From assembly GCA_001548435.1 (NCBI GenBank), contig AP017308.1, positions 1,435,030 to 1,499,029 of the forward strand: a DNA stretch of 64,000 nucleotides. Reading direction: 5' to 3'. The position numbers were made by a program, and so were the translations under genes. Under the pieces are notes generated by a model. The model did not search any database. It was not told the DNA's origin and saw only the letters and a list, made by a program, of their open reading frames with translations. Below are positions 51,060-56,753 of this stretch, in pieces (positions within the stretch are counted from its first letter, which is position 1; every line of letters begins with the position of its first letter). This stretch comes from Leptolyngbya sp. NIES-3755 (GTDB taxonomy: Bacteria; Cyanobacteriota; Cyanobacteriia; Leptolyngbyales; Leptolyngbyaceae).

Positions 51060-52142
51060 TTAACCGTTGATTGCAGGTGCAGACAGCGCCACAGGTGCAG
51101 CTTCGCCAGCAGCCAAGTCGAGCGGGAAGTTGTGAGCGTTGCGCTCGTGCATCACCTCCATACCCAGGTTCGCACGGTTGATCACGTCAGACCAGGTGCT
51201 GACCACACGTCCTTGCGAGTCGATGATCGATTGGTTGAAGTTGAATCCGTTCAGGTTGAACGCCATCGTGGACACACCCAATGCGGTGAACCAGATGCCG
51301 ACGACGGGCCATGCTCCCAAGAAGAAGTGCAGGGCACGAGAGTTGTTAAACGAGGCGTATTGGAAGATCAACCGTCCGAAGTAGCCGTGGGCTGCAACGA
51401 TGTTGTAGGTTTCTTCTTCCTGTCCGAACTTGTAACCGTAGTTTTGGCTCTCAACTTCGGTGGTCTCACGCACCAACGAGGAGGTGACCAACGAACCGTG
51501 CATTGCACTGAACAAGCTGCCACCGAAGACTCCGGCAACGCCCAGCATGTGGAACGGGTGCATCAAGATGTTGTGCTCGGCTTGGAACACCAACATGAAG
51601 TTGAAGGTTCCAGAGATACCCAAAGGCATTCCGTCCGAGAACGATCCTTGTCCAATCGGGTAGATCAAGAAGACTGCGGTTGCTGCTGCAACAGGGGCAG
51701 AGTAGGCAACGCAGATCCAAGGACGCATTCCCAAGCGGTAGGAGAGTTCCCATTCCCGTCCCATGTAGCAGAAGACACCGATCAAGAAGTGGAATACAAC
51801 GAGTTGGTAGGGACCGCCGTTGTACAGCCACTCATCGAGTGATGCGGCTTCCCAGATTGGGTAGAAGTGCAAGCCGATCGCGTTCGACGAGGGAACGACT
51901 GCACCGGAGATGATGTTGTTGCCGAACATCAACGAACCAGCTACGGGTTCGCGGATGCCGTCGATGTCAACGGGAGGTGCTGCGATGAATGCAACGATGT
52001 AGCAGATGGTGGCAGCGAGCAAGGTCGGGATCATCAATACGCCGAACCAGCCTACGTACAGGCGGTTGTCGGTCGAGGTGACCCAGTTGCAGAACTGCGC
52101 CCACAGGTTGGCGCTCTCGCGTCTCTGTAAGGTGGTTGTCAT
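51060..52142 (-). CDS. psbA: Photosystem II D1 protein
   Basis: 360 residues from [20 protein letters not shown]; reaction-centre subunit that binds P680, pheophytin, QB and Mn ligands. Residue 130 is Glu ([11 protein letters not shown]), the form linked to high-light D1. His215 and the QB pocket region, [20 protein letters not shown], and Mn ligands near the C-terminus ([12 protein letters not shown]) are normal; a 16-residue extension after Ala344 is removed on maturation. The frame is open 16 codons farther upstream but homology starts here. Confidence 0.99.
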
Positions 52143-52197
52143 GGTTGGATAATTACTGTTTGAAGGAATGATGTATGTGGTGTTAACCACACTTTAC

Positions 52198-52236
52198 ATA
52201 TTACGGGGAAGATTTCGATTTGTAAAGCGTTTTAAC
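52198..52236 (-). promoter_or_regulatory. psbA promoter with HLR1-like site
   Basis: Minus strand: GTTAAAAC-GC-TTTACAAA (52236-52219) matches the RpaB HLR1 repeat at 6/8 and 8/8 bases; the TTTACA inside also serves as -35, followed 17 bp later by -10 TAATAT (52203-52198). A start near 52190 gives a leader of about 48 nt, usual for psbA. Confidence 0.65.
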
Positions 52237-52271
52237 AAACTTTTCAGGATTCTCTGTCTAAAGGGATAGGG

Positions 52272-52991
52272 TTACAGTTCTAAACGGATTTCGGCTCGAT
52301 CGATATTCTCTCTCGTCCATTGGGAGAAAAGCTCTTGAAGAATTTGAGCGCGAAGAGTTTTGGTTAACTCAGGCTGGATCAGGGATTTAACGAAAATGAG
52401 AACGGGTGAAATTGGGCTGAGTACGGTTGGGGGTACGGTTGGGAAAATACTGGAAGCGAGGTCTTAAGGAAGACGCGATCGCGTAAAAATCCCCCAATAT
52501 CCGTTTCGTCTCCGATTCTTATCTGACCCGAATCGTTGCACAACTTCATGAAAAGTCATATCTCTTGCTGCGATCCCTTTGTACATTTCTTGGGCAATTC
52601 TCAGATTCGGCAGCGTGACTTTGTAAAGAACGGCTTGGATATAGTTGGCGACGTTTTCGTAGAAATGCGTTTCGATTTGTCGATCGAATAGACAATAAGA
52701 CAATTTTGCTTGAAGCGTTTCGGCATAGATGAACGCTTCAAATTCCTCGATCGTTAAGCGATATTTCTCAAGTCGAGTGAGGGTAGCTTCAGCACTCGAA
52801 AGATTGTGTTTTAGGCGGAAGGCATCGGCGGCTTGTTGGAGTTCGATCAGATCAACTTGGATGCCAGAGCGAGTAGAAGCTGTATTGACTAACTAGCGAG
52901 TGACGATCGCATCAATGATTTCTGGAAGTTTGAGGGAGAGTTTGACTTGCTGGACAATATCATTCGGAAACACAGGGAACAGGTCAGACAT
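52272..52991 (-). pseudogene. Peptidylprolyl-isomerase-like gene with two in-frame stops
   Basis: 240 codons in one unbroken frame from ATG (52991) to TAA (52272), interrupted only by TAG at 52895-52893 and TAA at 52466-52464. The protein would be MSDLFPVFPNDIVQQVKLSL, VDLIELQQAADAFRLKHNLS, AAR-DMTFHEVVQRFGSD, NGYWGIFTRSRLP and LTKTLRAQILQELFSQWTRE. This is the cyanobacterial parvulin/SurA-like isomerase family that often sits beside C39-peptidase ABC exporters of leader peptides. Each stop differs from a Gln codon (CAG, CAA) by one C-to-T change. Probably a recent pseudogene. Confidence 0.85.
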
Positions 52992-53180
52992 TCTGAGAAT
53001 CAAGTCGTCGAGATAAGGTGAATAAAAATTTGGAAGATGTAGAAATCGCTTCAGTTCCTTGAAGGTGAGAACTTTATTAATCTAGGGCGTAACTTGAGAA
53101 ATTGATAAAGAGATAGGGAGACGTTCTAGACCTATCTATGGAATGAGATTTACGATCGCATTCCCATACAAGGAGCAATC

Positions 53181-54155
53181 ATGTTTGCTTTCTTTCGGTC
53201 TGCGATTGGTATTCTCGGCTGGAGCTATCTGGGTAGTCTTTTACTTTGGTTTGGGTTGCGGCTTCTGTTTTTTGATCGCTTTTGGTGGTTGGCGCTGCTC
53301 AATACGTTTGCGCCTTATCTGTTTTTGCCGATCGTGATTCTGTTGCCGCTTGCATTCTGGAGTCGAAAGAGACGGTTGCTGATGGGGCTTGTTCTGAGCT
53401 GTCTATTATTTGTTGTGCTATTTCCGCCCAGATTGAATTTTCCTACAGCAGCACGACGAGACACAGTGCTTAGGCTGATGACCTTTAATCTGTTGTGGAG
53501 CAATCAGGACTATCCGAAAATTACTCAGATGGTTCGGAAGATGGATGCTGATGTGATTGGACTGCAAGAGTTACAACCGAAAGAACTTCCGAATCTGTTG
53601 AAAGCAATTTCGCCGATTTATCCTTATCATGCGATTCATCCAGTCGATCGATTTCATACCGTTGCATTGTTTAGTCGCTTACCGATCGAGTCTGTCAAGC
53701 CGCTGCCTTTTCCACCGATCAAGCGAGGATTACAAGCAATGGTTCGATATGGCGATCGGCGGATTAATGTTGTAGTGACGCATCTTACGCCAAATAATAT
53801 TCCGCTGAATCAATTGGTGGCTGAAACTACCGATCGATACACTCGCAGAGCCGCAGAAACGGAGTTTTTGAAGAAGTTTGTGCCAGAACAATCATTGCCG
53901 ACAGTAATGTTATGTGATTGCAATATGACAGATAGTTCTGAAACTTATGATGAATTGCGAAAAGTGTTGCAAGATAGCTTTCAGGAACGAGGACAGGGCA
54001 CGGGACATACCTTAGTGAGTAACATTGTGCCCTTTGCAGTCCAACGATTAGACTATGTTTGGCACACGGGTGAACTACAGTCGATCGAATCTTTTGTCGG
54101 AACGGATGGCGGTTCTGATCATCTTCCAGTGATTGCTAGTTTTCGAGTTCCCTAA
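53181..54155 (+). CDS. Membrane-anchored EEP-family phosphatase/nuclease
   Basis: 324 residues. Three N-terminal membrane helices (to ~75) are followed by an EEP domain: LMTFNLLWSNQDYPKI, DVIGLQELQP, VVVTHLTPNN, VMLCDCNMTDSSETYD and DGGSDHLPVIASF. The catalytic Asn, Glu, Asp-x-Asn and Asp-His are all present. The domain faces the outer side if the helices insert as usual. Paralogous in fold, not in detail, to the soluble EEP gene at 49.9 kb. Role unknown. Confidence 0.9.
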   Translation: MFAFFRSAIGILGWSYLGSLLLWFGLRLLFFDRFWWLALLNTFAPYLFLPIVILLPLAFWSRKRRLLMGLVLSCLLFVVLFPPRLNFPTAARRDTVLRLMTFNLLWSNQDYPKITQMVRKMDADVIGLQELQPKELPNLLKAISPIYPYHAIHPVDRFHTVALFSRLPIESVKPLPFPPIKRGLQAMVRYGDRRINVVVTHLTPNNIPLNQLVAETTDRYTRRAAETEFLKKFVPEQSLPTVMLCDCNMTDSSETYDELRKVLQDSFQERGQGTGHTLVSNIVPFAVQRLDYVWHTGELQSIESFVGTDGGSDHLPVIASFRVP

Positions 54156-54284
54156 AGGTTGACTTCAGCCGTTGTAGTTTGTCTGGGTGTGAGTTAGTTT
54201 GCTATAGGCTTTGTTGAATCACAGTAAGACATGCTAGGAGGGAACATCAAGCGAATCTCCCAAATGCGGAGGATTCACGGAAGA

Positions 54285-54599
54285 CTAGCCTTTGGACGAA
54301 TTCAGATCGTCGGTCGTAACACTGAATCGCTTAAGGTTAATCCGGGCGCGGGTTGAAAGCCCCATCTGTTTGAGTAATCGATTGATATGTCGATCGCTAA
54401 TGGCGACTCCAGTTTCTTGTAGTAGATGTTTCCGCAGCCAGTGGGCTGTCCAACGCTCAAACGGGTAGCCAAACTGTTTCGGACTATGACTGACCAGTTC
54501 TTTTAACCGAGCGAGATAGTCATCGTTAATCGTTTTGGGTCTTCCCACAGGTTGACCGCTCCATTCATCCTGTGCAAATTGCTTCGTAGTCTTGGTCAT
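54285..54599 (-). mobile_element. IS630-family transposase fragment (winged HTH part)
   Basis: 104 residues with the HTH_33 winged-helix pattern: FGYPFERWTAHWLRKHLLQ, then SDRHINRLLKQMGLSTRA. The DDE catalytic half is missing and the first HTH is not complete, so this is a remnant or a stand-alone HTH protein derived from a transposase. About 64 bp downstream lies GGCTTTGTTGAATCA (54207-54221), which looks like an IS end. Confidence 0.7.
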
Positions 54600-54891
54600 G
54601 GAACACACTCCCTAACAGATAGAGGGGCGATCGTTTGGTAGAAGCTCGATCGCCTTTTGTTAGGTAGAATCACCCGTTTCTGATGTTATTAAACGCGATT
54701 AATGCCCTAAATTGAAAGGTTGAAAATACTATCTTTTTGTCCAAAATTATGTCCGAAAAAGCACTTTCAGGAGATTGATTATCTGAAACTGCATCGCTAA
54801 CAATTGCGATATCGGTAGACGCAAGACGTGATTTCTTAACCTATCGATAACTTACTAAATCCCATTACACTTTGCAAGTGAGAGTGTTACT

Positions 54892-55062
54892 ATGACTCAG
54901 ATTTCAATTTCAAATCTTTCTGATGGTTCTGCTCTGTTGAATGATTCAGAAAGTTTCTTGATGGACTTGTCGGATGCCGAATTGCAAATTTCTGGCGGCG
55001 GTTGCTATGGCGGCAAGAGTGGCAAGAGCGACAAAGGTAGCAGCGGTTGTTTCTGTCATTAA
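54892..55062 (+). CDS. Double-glycine leader peptide, RiPP-precursor-like
   Basis: 56 residues: leader MTQISISNLSDGSALLNDSE, SFLMDLSDAELQISGG, then a core beginning at the G-G site with GCYGGKSGKSDKGSSGCFCH. Acidic, hydrophobic leader with L-x-x-x-L spacing before G-G and a small core rich in Gly, Lys, Ser (four) and Cys (three) fit an exported, modified peptide. A strong terminator follows directly. The next gene is the stub of an APH-like kinase, which in class V lanthipeptide clusters helps to dehydrate Ser. Chemistry of the product is inference. Confidence 0.7.
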   Translation: MTQISISNLSDGSALLNDSESFLMDLSDAELQISGGGCYGGKSGKSDKGSSGCFCH

Positions 55063-55117
55063 TCTTCGCTCATTGAGAGCCAAATTCGGTTTCTCTACTG
55101 GAACTAGATCTAGTTGG

Positions 55118-55161
55118 AAAAAAGGGTTTTCAATTGCGATATCCAGCTGGAAACCCTTTTT
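55118..55161 (+). terminator. Terminator/attenuator between leader peptide and kinase stub
   Basis: AAAAAGGGTTTTC pairs with GGAAACCCTTTTT over an 17-base loop, ending in T residues. Such partial terminators keep peptide transcripts in excess over the enzymes downstream. Confidence 0.8.
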
Positions 55162-55196
55162 ATGAAATAGAAAAGTAATCTTAAGTTTTCAAGATT

Positions 55197-55520
55197 ATGC
55201 CTTTTTTACTAAGCACTCAAAATGTTTTGGCTTATTTAAATGAGCGCAAGATTTCTAATGCAAATTCTGATTTTCTCTTGAAGATTCAACCAAAATCAGG
55301 CAAGAATTTTAACTTATTAGTTCAGTTTAAAGATCGAACTGCTTTTCTGGTGAAGCAAGAGCAGCATAATTTAATTGGAAACACAGATCAAGAGTTTCGA
55401 CGTGAATGGTGTTTGCAAAAAATGTTAGCTACATTTCCCGAACTGTGTTGTCTGAGAAAATGGTTAGTTGAACCGATCGATATTGATCTCGATCGCTGCA
55501 ATTTGCAGGTGCAATTTTAA
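55197..55520 (+). pseudogene. 5' stub of an APH-like phosphotransferase gene
   Basis: 107 residues, MPFLLSTQNVLAYLNERKIS and KNFNLLVQFKDRTAFLVKQE, then EFRREWCLQKMLATFPEL. This matches in pattern the N-lobe of cyanobacterial phosphotransferases (APH fold) of ~350 residues with the Lys of the ATP site in FLVKQE. The catalytic loop and the rest are missing, so the gene is broken. It lies directly behind the leader peptide gene and its terminator. Confidence 0.65.
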
Positions 55521-55671
55521 TCGACACAATCCAAATCAAGCAGAAGCATTGATTCGTGAGAGAACAATAAATGCGATCATGCAGCGGTTTATAAAAGCAG
55601 GACTGGACTTTGAGCGACCTTATCTCGCTGCTAAGACTGACTCTCTCGTTTTACAGTCTGCTAAAGCTTGA
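55510..55671 (+). pseudogene. 3' remnant joined to the kinase stub
   Basis: In another frame, following the stub: NPNQAEALIRERTINAIMQR, FIKAGLDFERPYLAAKTDSL and a TGA stop at 55669-55671. It reads like the C-terminus of another protein; a HopA1-like lyase tail is one possibility since such proteins lie next to these kinases, but I cannot confirm it. Probably a deletion joined two genes. It overlaps the end of the convergent glycosyltransferase. Confidence 0.35.
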
Positions 55672-56753
55672 TTGATTCGGGTCACTCTTGCCCAACGACG
55701 CAACATCAATAGTTCGTATGGCTTTCTCAACCACGGATAGCGGCGTTTATTGTTCGGATCATTCACTTGCTCAAGCGTGAACTTTTGGGCGGGTAGTTGC
55801 TTCACTGCTGACTTGGGTTTAGGCGATCGCGGAAATACGAACCTCAGTGCACTCGGAACTACGACTCGAAAAGTTTCCGGTCTCAGCAACAGTGCCCAAT
55901 CGACTCCTAAACCTTCCCAAAACCAGAGCAGCACTTGTTTATAGTCTTGATTCTCATAGCCTTTCACCAGTGCGAAGTTATAGAACAATCCCCGTGACCA
56001 TCGGAAAACAATCTCAGGTATTTCGGGATTTTGCCGTCGCATCATTGCCATTAGTTGAAAGAAAGAGTGATACATCGAAAGATGTTTTGATGCTAAGCTT
56101 CCGGTACTTTGTCGATAGGCGATCGCATATTCCCGCACGACCCGAACAGGATAATGTTTTGCCAAACGCAGATACAGTTCATAGTCCTCACAGCCTTGGA
56201 AGTTCAAATCCTCGATCGGTAAAGCATATCCACCAACTTTCTCAATACAACTCCGACGGAACATCGGAACACTGCCATTTTCCATAAAGTTGTAAAAGAT
56301 GAGTGTTGATAGTACCCAACCTTCAGGAACAAACGGTCGATCGATGTAATAGCGCCACAACAATCGATTCTGTTGGTCGATCGAGACTGACCAGCTATAC
56401 ACCATTCCCGCATTTGGGTCAGCATCTAGAGCTTGCACTTGCTTCTCAAGCTTACGAGGAAACCAAAGATCATCCGAATCCAGGGGTGCAAGATAAACCC
56501 CACTAGAATTTTGAATTGCTAAATTTCTCGCAGCAACCACACCTGCATGATTTTGCTGGAGTAATCGGATTCTCGAATCTTTCTGCATATAGTCGCGAAC
56601 AATGTTGATCGTGCGATCCGTTGAACCATCATCAACCACGATCGCTTCAAACTGTGAATAAGTTTGCGCTAACAATGAATCCAAGGTTTCAGCAATAAAT
56701 CGTTCTGCGTTGTAAGCAGGAATCAGAACAGAAACAAGGGAATTGCGGCTCAT
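55620..56753 (-). CDS. GT2-family glycosyltransferase
   Basis: 377 residues. GT-A fold: VSVLIPAYNAERFIAETLDS, AIVVDDGSTDRT, the D-x-D in LAPLDSDDLWFPRK and the acceptor helix region GCEDYELYLRLAKHYPV with the catalytic E-D. No membrane segments. The substrate is open. It starts one codon after the stop of the sugar phosphotransferase (TAG then ATG), so both are one operon. Its last 52 bases overlap the remnant on the other strand. Confidence 0.93.
   Translation of the reverse strand: MSRNSLVSVLIPAYNAERFIAETLDSLLAQTYSQFEAIVVDDGSTDRTINIVRDYMQKDSRIRLLQQNHAGVVAARNLAIQNSSGVYLAPLDSDDLWFPRKLEKQVQALDADPNAGMVYSWSVSIDQQNRLLWRYYIDRPFVPEGWVLSTLIFYNFMENGSVPMFRRSCIEKVGGYALPIEDLNFQGCEDYELYLRLAKHYPVRVVREYAIAYRQSTGSLASKHLSMYHSFFQLMAMMRRQNPEIPEIVFRWSRGLFYNFALVKGYENQDYKQVLLWFWEGLGVDWALLLRPETFRVVVPSALRFVFPRSPKPKSAVKQLPAQKFTLEQVNDPNNKRRYPWLRKPYELLMLRRWARVTRINQALADCKTRESVLAAR

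What the first reader, a model, noticed from the sequence alone, without database searches (positions are those of the whole stretch)
52272..55671. Degraded peptide (RiPP-like) locus with an intact precursor
Seen: an intact 56-residue double-glycine leader peptide with a Cys/Ser/Gly/Lys core, a terminator after it, the 5' third of an APH-fold phosphotransferase fused to an unrelated 3' remnant, a transposase fragment, and 2 kb away a peptidylprolyl-isomerase-like pseudogene. Known: such isomerases are found beside C39-type peptide exporters in cyanobacteria, and class V lanthipeptide clusters use an APH-like kinase with a HopA1-like lyase. Inference: the region held a lanthipeptide-like system; its enzymes are decaying while the precursor stays intact, so the precursor may be processed by enzymes elsewhere.
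Basis: partly seen in the sequence, partly recalled or inferred. Interest (0 to 1): 0.75.

Follow-up and report, generated by a model that had tools for sequence, protein, structure and literature searches.

The report
Decayed cyanobacterial peptide-maker with intact precursor
This stretch is the wreck of a gene cluster that made a small modified peptide: the peptide gene survives while its enzymes are broken, and better-preserved relatives carry lysine- and serine-rich peptides whose partner enzyme has lost catalytic residues, hinting at a phosphorylated rather than a ring-forming product.

Summary
Congeners G021 and G022 carry the orthologous locus, as far as their contigs reach: precursor, LxmK-like kinase, HopA1-type lyase, and a divergent HTH / C39-ABC / HlyD / isomerase operon. 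In the window the exporter genes are gone, the isomerase has two premature stops, and two deletions fuse the kinase 5' part to the lyase 3' end (the 'unrelated remnant'). The 'transposase fragment' is an HTH protein conserved upstream of the exporter (34 of 35 loci with both). The genome keeps one intact paralogous cluster, so processing in trans is possible but unshown. The leader shows purifying selection, but kinase loss looks recent, so an intact precursor proves little. The family is known (cyanobacterial 'Family 1A' / 'type-B' class V-like clusters). New here: Ser-Lys/Arg-rich cores sit beside lyases lacking catalytic residues conserved in LxmY and CaoY (6 of 9 such loci against 0 of 65 with the full site; 2 of 3 in a second, hand-picked sample), while the kinases keep their motifs. 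These systems may make phosphopeptides, not lanthipeptides.

The parts
52272..52991 (-). PpiC/SurA-type peptidylprolyl-isomerase-like pseudogene, one frame, two premature stops
   Evidence: 37% over 236 aa to an intact isomerase of L009, E 1.5e-49; DNA match of 52048-52992 to the isomerase end of L022; stops read
53181..54155 (+). endonuclease/exonuclease/phosphatase-family ORF (VanJ-like) standing where HlyD and C39-ABC stand in congeners
   Evidence: Pfam PF03372 E 5e-19; absent from the locus in L021/L022; same place in G018
54285..54608 (-). 107-aa HTH-only protein related to the DNA-binding part of IS630 transposases; conserved member of these clusters, not debris
   Evidence: same-length ORF in L021 and L022, open ORF in G018; HTH upstream of C39-ABC on the same strand in 34 of 35 loci having both
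54892..55062 (+). intact 56-aa precursor: leader MTQISISNLSDGSALLNDSESFLMDLSDAELQISGG, core (G)CYGGKSGKSDKGSSGCFCH
55116..55162 (+). conserved hairpin between precursor and kinase (possible terminator/attenuator)
55197..55497 (+). 5' part of an LxmK-like (APH-fold) kinase; catalytic loop and DWE motif deleted
55489..55541 (+). 53-bp scrap from the 3' part of the kinase gene, left between two deletions
   Evidence: matches L021 4639-4691 at 88.7%
55540..55671 (+). 3' end of the HopA1-type lyase gene (the 'unrelated remnant')
   Evidence: 58% over 53 aa to the lyase C-terminus of G021; DNA collinear with L021 5613-7829 at 83%
55620..56753 (-). glycosyltransferase, the shared right-hand neighbour that anchors the synteny
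   Evidence: 85% to G021; L021 ORF 5693-6835

Best explanation
The window holds a decayed cluster of the cyanobacterial HopA1/APH peptide family. In the intact form a leader-bearing precursor is recognised by an LxmK-like kinase that works with a HopA1-fold partner. Serines in the Ser-Gly-Lys repeat core are phosphorylated. The leader is cut after the double glycine by the C39 domain of the ABC exporter, and the peptide leaves through ABC/HlyD; an isomerase and an HTH protein belong to the exporter operon. Shown: gene content, order, homology, deletions and stops, leader conservation, and lyase residue losses in relatives. Inferred: the chemistry, the role of the HTH protein, and the order of events (exporter perhaps lost early, kinase and lyase deleted recently). 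In this strain the precursor is now an orphan that, by this enzyme type, could be modified only by the paralogous kinase/lyase at C1:3.69 Mb.
For: Orthologous loci in G021 and G022. The window remnant aligns to the G021 lyase tail, BLOSUM62 score 137, and the DNA is collinear with two gaps. The paralogous cluster of the same genome holds kinase, HopA1, aldo/keto reductase, two isomerases, C39-ABC, HlyD and six leader-matched precursors; it has the only HopA1 domain match of the genome. Kinases of G021, G022 and G005 have NF038156 LxmK as their best NCBIfam model, though far below its cut-off. The predicted G021 lyase (pLDDT 89.5) matches LxmY 9dk3_B best (E 9.6e-16, TM 0.71). Leader: 10 synonymous, 0 nonsynonymous changes against G021.
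Against: I know of no expression or mass data for a member; none turned up in the papers seen. The G021 lyase keeps the essential lysine, so some elimination may remain. The exporter-less arrangement is shared with G018, but one gene tree joins G000 with G021 (95/96), which fits a single vertical loss poorly. Kinase scores stay below the LxmK model cut-off (102.9, 112.2 and 54.1 bits against 315). The G022 lyase is known only in two pieces on different contigs, taken here as one gene.
Confidence: 0.75

Rival explanations
1. Ordinary class V dehydration: kinase plus lyase turn the serines into dehydroalanine, and the cysteines (or lysines) add to form lanthionine or lysinoalanine rings.
For: The G021 and G022 lyases keep the lysine whose loss kills CaoY (PMC9486802 section 6, read), and the G021 one keeps the LxmY fold. 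The window and G021 cores hold 3 Cys each, the G022 core 1.
Against: The residue at the CaoY Arg187 place is D (G021), H (G022) or missing (G005), and that at the Tyr236 place is S, T and S. The paper reports that R187A nearly abolished elimination and left mostly phosphorylated peptide. Of the lyases that lost the full site, 0 of 10 lie in a locus with the reductase, against 37 of 69 (flanks cut in many).
Confidence: 0.3
2. The orphan precursor is still matured in trans by the paralogous cluster at C1:3.69 Mb (kinase, lyase, C39 exporter).
For: Leaders are 54-55% identical over 37-38 residues to four of its precursors. The genome has six C39 domains. The leader shows no nonsynonymous change against G021.
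Against: Its enzymes are only 42% (kinase) and 33% (lyase) identical to the G021 pair, and its cores are Cys-free and not Lys-rich. Kinase loss looks recent, so conservation may simply predate it.
Confidence: 0.35
3. The precursor is a dead relic that has not yet decayed.
For: Cognate exporter, isomerase, kinase and lyase are lost or broken. The stub shows no faster change than the intact kinase (1 window-specific against 2 G021-specific amino-acid changes, 13 unresolved), so little time may have passed. G018 has already lost the precursor and keeps an 88-bp kinase scrap.
Against: The exporter loss is shared with G018 (dS about 1.0 on the ORF in its place) and so may be old, while the leader stayed free of amino-acid changes against G021.
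Confidence: 0.45

Closest known systems
Cyanobacterial HopA1/phosphotransferase 'Family 1A' clusters (Eyles et al. 2021, PMC8153245, section 16 read) / 'type-B' precursors (Liang et al. 2022, PMC9486802, sections 6-7 read)
   Same: Double-glycine leader, kinase+HopA1 pair, cyanobacteria, variable cores; that the leaders are the very same type is my inference, their alignments are in supplements not seen
   Different: One leader-matched precursor found per locus in G000, G021, G022, G005 instead of several; Ser-Gly-Lys repeat core; no aldo/keto reductase match; altered lyase site in the better-preserved relatives; in the window the enzymes are broken
Class V lanthipeptide systems: lexapeptide LxmKY (PDB 9DK1; review PMC12141560, section 10 read) and cacaoidin CaoKY (PMC9486802, sections 6-7 and passages)
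   Same: Kinase nearest to the LxmK model, lyase of the LxmY fold
   Different: Actinobacterial leaders of another type; complete R/K/R/Y lyase site; cysteine decarboxylase and F420-dependent reductase partners per the paper, not seen among the ORFs named here but not searched for
Cyanobacterial bacteriocin cluster groups I/II (Wang et al. 2011, PMC3140520, 12 of 20 passages seen)
   Same: Long-type C39-ABC with cNMP (CAP_ED) domain, HlyD and SurA/rotamase; truncated and rearranged clusters reported there too
   Different: The passages seen do not mention the kinase/HopA1 pair or the HTH gene

Membership tests
Cyanobacterial HopA1/APH 'Family 1A' RiPP cluster | conserved double-glycine leader precursor | tested here: met
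   window peptide and relatives found by one leader profile, 231 ORFs in 80 loci
Cyanobacterial HopA1/APH 'Family 1A' RiPP cluster | adjacent kinase + HopA1 lyase | tested here: met
   present in G021; G022 kinase whole, lyase cut by contig ends; broken in the window
Class V lanthipeptide | LxmK kinase above the NCBIfam cut-off | tested here: not met
   NF038156 is the best model but at 102.9 (G021), 112.2 (G022) and 54.1 bits (G005) against 315; window only a stub
Class V lanthipeptide | HopA1/LxmY-type lyase | tested here: met
   PF17914 99.5 bits, cut-off 22.7, G021; LxmY fold; only the 3' tail remains in the window
Class V lanthipeptide | complete lyase catalytic residues (CaoY R187, K219, R229, Y236) | tested here: not met
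   G021 D/K/C/S, G022 H/K/R/T, G005 -/A/D/S; the R187 position is inferred from spacing and alignment to LxmY
Class V lanthipeptide | (methyl)lanthionine in the product | not testable with these tools
   needs mass spectrometry/NMR
IS630 transposase (the 'fragment') | DDE catalytic domain | tested here: not met
   the 107-aa ORF passes Pfam cut-offs only for HTH_32 and HTH_33 and matches 50-113 of 299 positions of the IS630 model; same-length ORF in G021 and G022 and an open one in G018

The most novel reading that the evidence does not exclude
Across several cyanobacterial lineages, class V-like kinase/HopA1 pairs have been turned from dehydratases into peptide kinases. The lyase is kept as a catalytically crippled partner of the kinase, the core has become a Ser-Lys/Arg repeat, often flanked by cysteines, and the exported product is a phosphoserine-lysine polyampholyte (comparable, from memory, to diatom silaffins or SR domains) instead of a lanthipeptide. 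The window is a dying member of this branch.
Probability: 0.4. Interest if true: 0.8.

Novelty: new variant of a known kind. Interest (0 to 1): 0.6.

Why it matters
If the lyase in these clusters no longer eliminates phosphate, tools that call every kinase/HopA1 pair a 'class V lanthipeptide' cluster mislabel a branch of them, and cyanobacteria would export phosphorylated polycationic peptides made by a leader-guided kinase. One co-expression and a mass spectrum would test it. The window itself shows how such a cluster falls apart and leaves a natural orphan precursor for testing processing by a paralogous enzyme set in the same cell.

Tried and rejected
Rejected: 'unrelated 3' remnant' (it is the lyase tail; the first test against the paralogous lyase alone gave only E 0.043, and the G021 orthologue settled it). 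Rejected: 'transposase fragment' as debris. Left aside: the two other weak leader hits of the own genome, C1:1764359 (stop inside) and C1:568870 (E 3.4).

Led nowhere: Pfam and NCBIfam for the peptide (no family); 'CTB family bacteriocin' papers (only the annotation name); the LanM-type domain search of the own genome rang in no control either, so it says nothing about absence; the promoter/terminator scan found no more than shuffles give; the psbA dN/dS printed was computed in a wrong frame and is not used.

A simple story of one exporter loss in a common ancestor of G000 and G018 was not adopted: the DUF847 gene tree, which lacks G022, joins G000 with G021.

Results against the phosphopeptide idea: 3 of 9 altered-lyase loci with a precursor in the first sample have cores that are not Lys/Arg-rich (L042, L046, L047). 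In the second sample L213 has an altered lyase beside ordinary cores, and 9 of 12 altered lyases have no leader-matched precursor in the stretch read (two of these, L205 and L210, with only 1.5-kb flanks). G021 and G022 keep the essential lysine. The counts are not corrected for kinship: L098/L107, L046/L047 and L021/L022 are close pairs, L054/L055 have identical kinases, and L027/L074 look like one contig. The 20 longer stretches of the second sample were picked by me, mainly low-scoring matches plus a few top ones, so 12 of 34 is no frequency.
Full report
OBSERVATION. The 56-residue ORF at 54892-55062 (+) is intact and has a double-glycine leader. A search of the own genome down to E 10 found eight further matches; six lie within 1.8 kb at C1:3697151-3698926, two are weak and elsewhere. 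In the order, 7 of 42 genomes searched have a match at E <= 0.01, the own genome included; two congeners, G021 and G022, match at 94% and 86%. Contigs of the same length and gene coordinates are recorded as Pseudanabaenaceae cyanobacterium LEGE 13415 and the MAG Leptolyngbya sp. Prado105.

ANATOMY OF THE INTACT FORM. The whole G021 contig (L021) reads HlyD (cut by the contig end)-C39/ABC-HTH on one strand and precursor-kinase-HopA1 on the other, followed by the same glycosyltransferase and sugar transferase as in the window. L022 of G022 reads HTH-C39/ABC-HlyD-isomerase and, divergent, precursor-kinase-HopA1, the last cut by the contig end. A further HopA1 piece lies at the end of another G022 contig and matches only positions 2-121 of 170 of the family, so this lyase may be altered at its C-terminus. 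The window DNA matches L021 from 54210 to 55497, then 55489-55541, then 55540 onward, with jumps of about 0.63 and 0.92 kb in L021: two deletions, one inside the kinase and one from the kinase end into the lyase. The last 53 residues read as the C-terminus of the G021 lyase. The isomerase pseudogene keeps one frame with two premature stops. HlyD and C39/ABC gave no match here (the only C39-ABC match of the window is an unrelated ABC ATPase at about 30.4-31.0 kb); an Exo_endo_phos ORF stands in their place.

THE HTH ORF. Above Pfam cut-offs it hits only HTH domains, and it matches the N-terminal part of the IS630 model. Among 52 loci with a C39-ABC match of 300 bits or more, 35 also have this HTH, and in 34 of 35 it lies upstream on the same strand, 16-1348 bases from the C39-ABC match. 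Of the 17 without, 13 have under 900 bases of sequence upstream; 4 have room and lack it. G018, which has lost the precursor, still has the ORF open. It is a regular member of these clusters; a regulatory role is inference.

PARALOGOUS CLUSTER. L009 (C1:3685000-3704999) holds an HTH, C39/ABC with a cNMP domain, HlyD, two isomerases, an aldo/keto reductase, HopA1, kinase and six leader-matched precursors whose cores lack cysteine. It carries the only PF17914 match of the genome at E <= 0.1; there are six C39 domains in all.

SELECTION. Window against G021: the first 40 codons of the precursor have 10 synonymous and 0 nonsynonymous differences; the kinase stub has omega 0.13; the lyase tail 0.36; the glycosyltransferase 0.09. 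The stub has not sped up: dN to G022 is 0.298 for the window and 0.302 for G021, with 1 window-specific and 2 G021-specific residues and 13 unresolved. Kinase loss therefore looks recent, and an open precursor is not strong evidence of use. The exporter-less arrangement is shared with G018 (Exo_endo_phos 81% identical, dS 1.04), but a gene tree joins G000 with G021, so a single old loss is not established.

FAMILY. A pattern scan with a kinase alignment found 311 relatives and returned 80 loci. I examined 88 loci: window, L009, L021-L028 and 78 of the 80, the other two being the same contigs as L021/L022. By any tblastn match at 1e-5, 87 have the kinase, 85 HopA1, 60 the isomerase, 54 C39-ABC, 52 HlyD, 38 the HTH and 37 the reductase; the window's stub and tail are counted, a few C39-ABC matches are ABC domains only, and flanks are cut in many. 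This fits the cyanobacterial Family 1A of PMC8153245 (section read) and the type-B set of PMC9486802 (section read). The C39/HlyD/SurA part fits group I/II of PMC3140520 (passages). The conserved hairpin between precursor and kinase may set a high precursor-to-enzyme ratio (inference).

CORES AND LYASES. Among 231 leader-matched ORFs in 80 loci, the window, L021, L022 and L025 (G005) have Ser-Gly-Lys(-Arg) repeat cores, three of the four with cysteine on both sides and L022 with one near the end. PMC9486802 (section 6) reports that CaoY K219A and R187A stop or nearly stop elimination and leave phosphorylated peptide, and that R229Q is inefficient. The matching positions of L009 are R227, K258, R268, Y275. 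The last three have exactly CaoY's spacing; R227 lies 31 residues before K258 against 32 in CaoY, so that position is inferred. LxmY (9dk1_B) aligns with the same four residues, and two Streptomyces lyases, one beside annotated LxmK and LxmA genes, carry all four. Of 80 cyanobacterial lyases read (short matches left out, the G022 piece included) 69 carry all four and 11 do not: G021 D/K/C/S, G022 H/K/R/T, G005 -/A/D/S and eight more; two alignment modes agree. Without the G022 piece, 0 of 10 altered against 37 of 69 unaltered lyases lie in a locus with the reductase (Fisher p 0.0013). Counting loci with a precursor, 6 of 9 altered against 0 of 65 unaltered have a core with at least 20% Lys/Arg and 10% Ser (Fisher p 4.5e-7, kinship not corrected). 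The kinases have the HxDxxxxN and D-aromatic-E motifs in 86 of 86.

SECOND SAMPLE. A profile of altered lyases searched in 386 cyanobacterial genomes matched in 55. I read the 30 loci returned and 20 longer stretches that I picked, mainly low-scoring matches. They gave 51 lyases, 34 after removing those shared with the first set or with each other: 22 unaltered, 12 altered. None of the 12 has the reductase within 2.5 kb, against 2 of 22 unaltered, most of the latter with 1.5-kb flanks. Three of the 12 have leader-matched precursors: L216 (core GGCGTKKSKKSNKTKKSKKSKKSKKSKYSCGCGYLC) and L215, both of G334, are Lys/Ser-rich (39-41% Lys/Arg, 18-19% Ser); L213 is not. The other nine show none. No core of the unaltered loci was flagged (0 of 9). 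L216 repeats the divergent HTH-C39-HlyD-isomerase / precursor-kinase-lyase order. The kinases of L021, L025, L215 and L216 are 30-44% identical to each other; in the set compared, L021 is nearest to L022, L025 and L215 to unaltered systems (L064, L051) and L216 to L215, so the trait does not look confined to one recent clade. In the 12, two neighbouring kinases lack a full motif in the frame read (L213, L223).

FOLD. The G021 lyase is predicted with mean pLDDT 89.5; its best solved match is LxmY of LxmKY (9dk3_B, E 9.6e-16, TM 0.71). The fold stays while active-site residues change. PMC12141560 (section 10) says that co-expression of LxmK and LxmY enhanced stability and yield, so a crippled lyase could be kept for its partner role (inference).

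LITERATURE REACH. Ten searches of the held library (several listed only part of their hits) with HopA1, class V, cyanobacteria, LxmK, lanthidin, IS630, silaffin, pseudoenzyme and like terms listed no paper whose title or abstract start describes lyase-site loss with Ser-Lys cores in cyanobacteria. Most subscription papers and all supplements are outside this reach. The likeness to silaffins and SR domains is recalled, not tested.

VERDICT. The lanthipeptide label is uncertain for this branch, and a kinase-only, phosphopeptide reading is open and cheap to test.

Noticed in passing
L098:10001-12427, L107:10001-12448: Kinase and HopA1 lyase appear to lie in one open frame (812 and 819 aa from the kinase match start); the G052 and G334:C119 lyase matches also lie in frames of 834 and 861 aa.
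   Followed up: no
L148:7323-7547 (G193): Another orphan Ser-Gly-Lys core peptide beside a short HlyD-like ORF, with no kinase, lyase or C39 match in the 20-kb stretch.
   Followed up: partly
L149, L150, L152, L153 (G071, G065, G104, G143): Leader-matched precursors with His-, Tyr/Gly- or Gly-Ser-rich cores and no kinase, lyase or exporter match in the stretches read: orphan precursors may be common in this family.
   Followed up: partly
L025:8985-9533 (-): In G005 the lyase ORF beside the SGKR-repeat precursor is only 182 aa and matches positions 2-91 of 170 of PF17914, while the kinase is whole.
   Followed up: yes
L214, L217, L220, L221, L222, L223, L231: Kinase/HopA1 pairs with altered lyase sites and no recognised precursor in the stretch read; possibly not peptide systems at all.
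   Followed up: partly
window 53181-54155: VanJ-like Exo_endo_phos ORF sits at the same place in G018; no match in G021 and G022 at E 1e-20.
   Followed up: partly
L063:5524-5823 (-): Precursor core with a tandem TFPIK repeat in a locus with kinase, lyase, reductase and isomerase matches.
   Followed up: no
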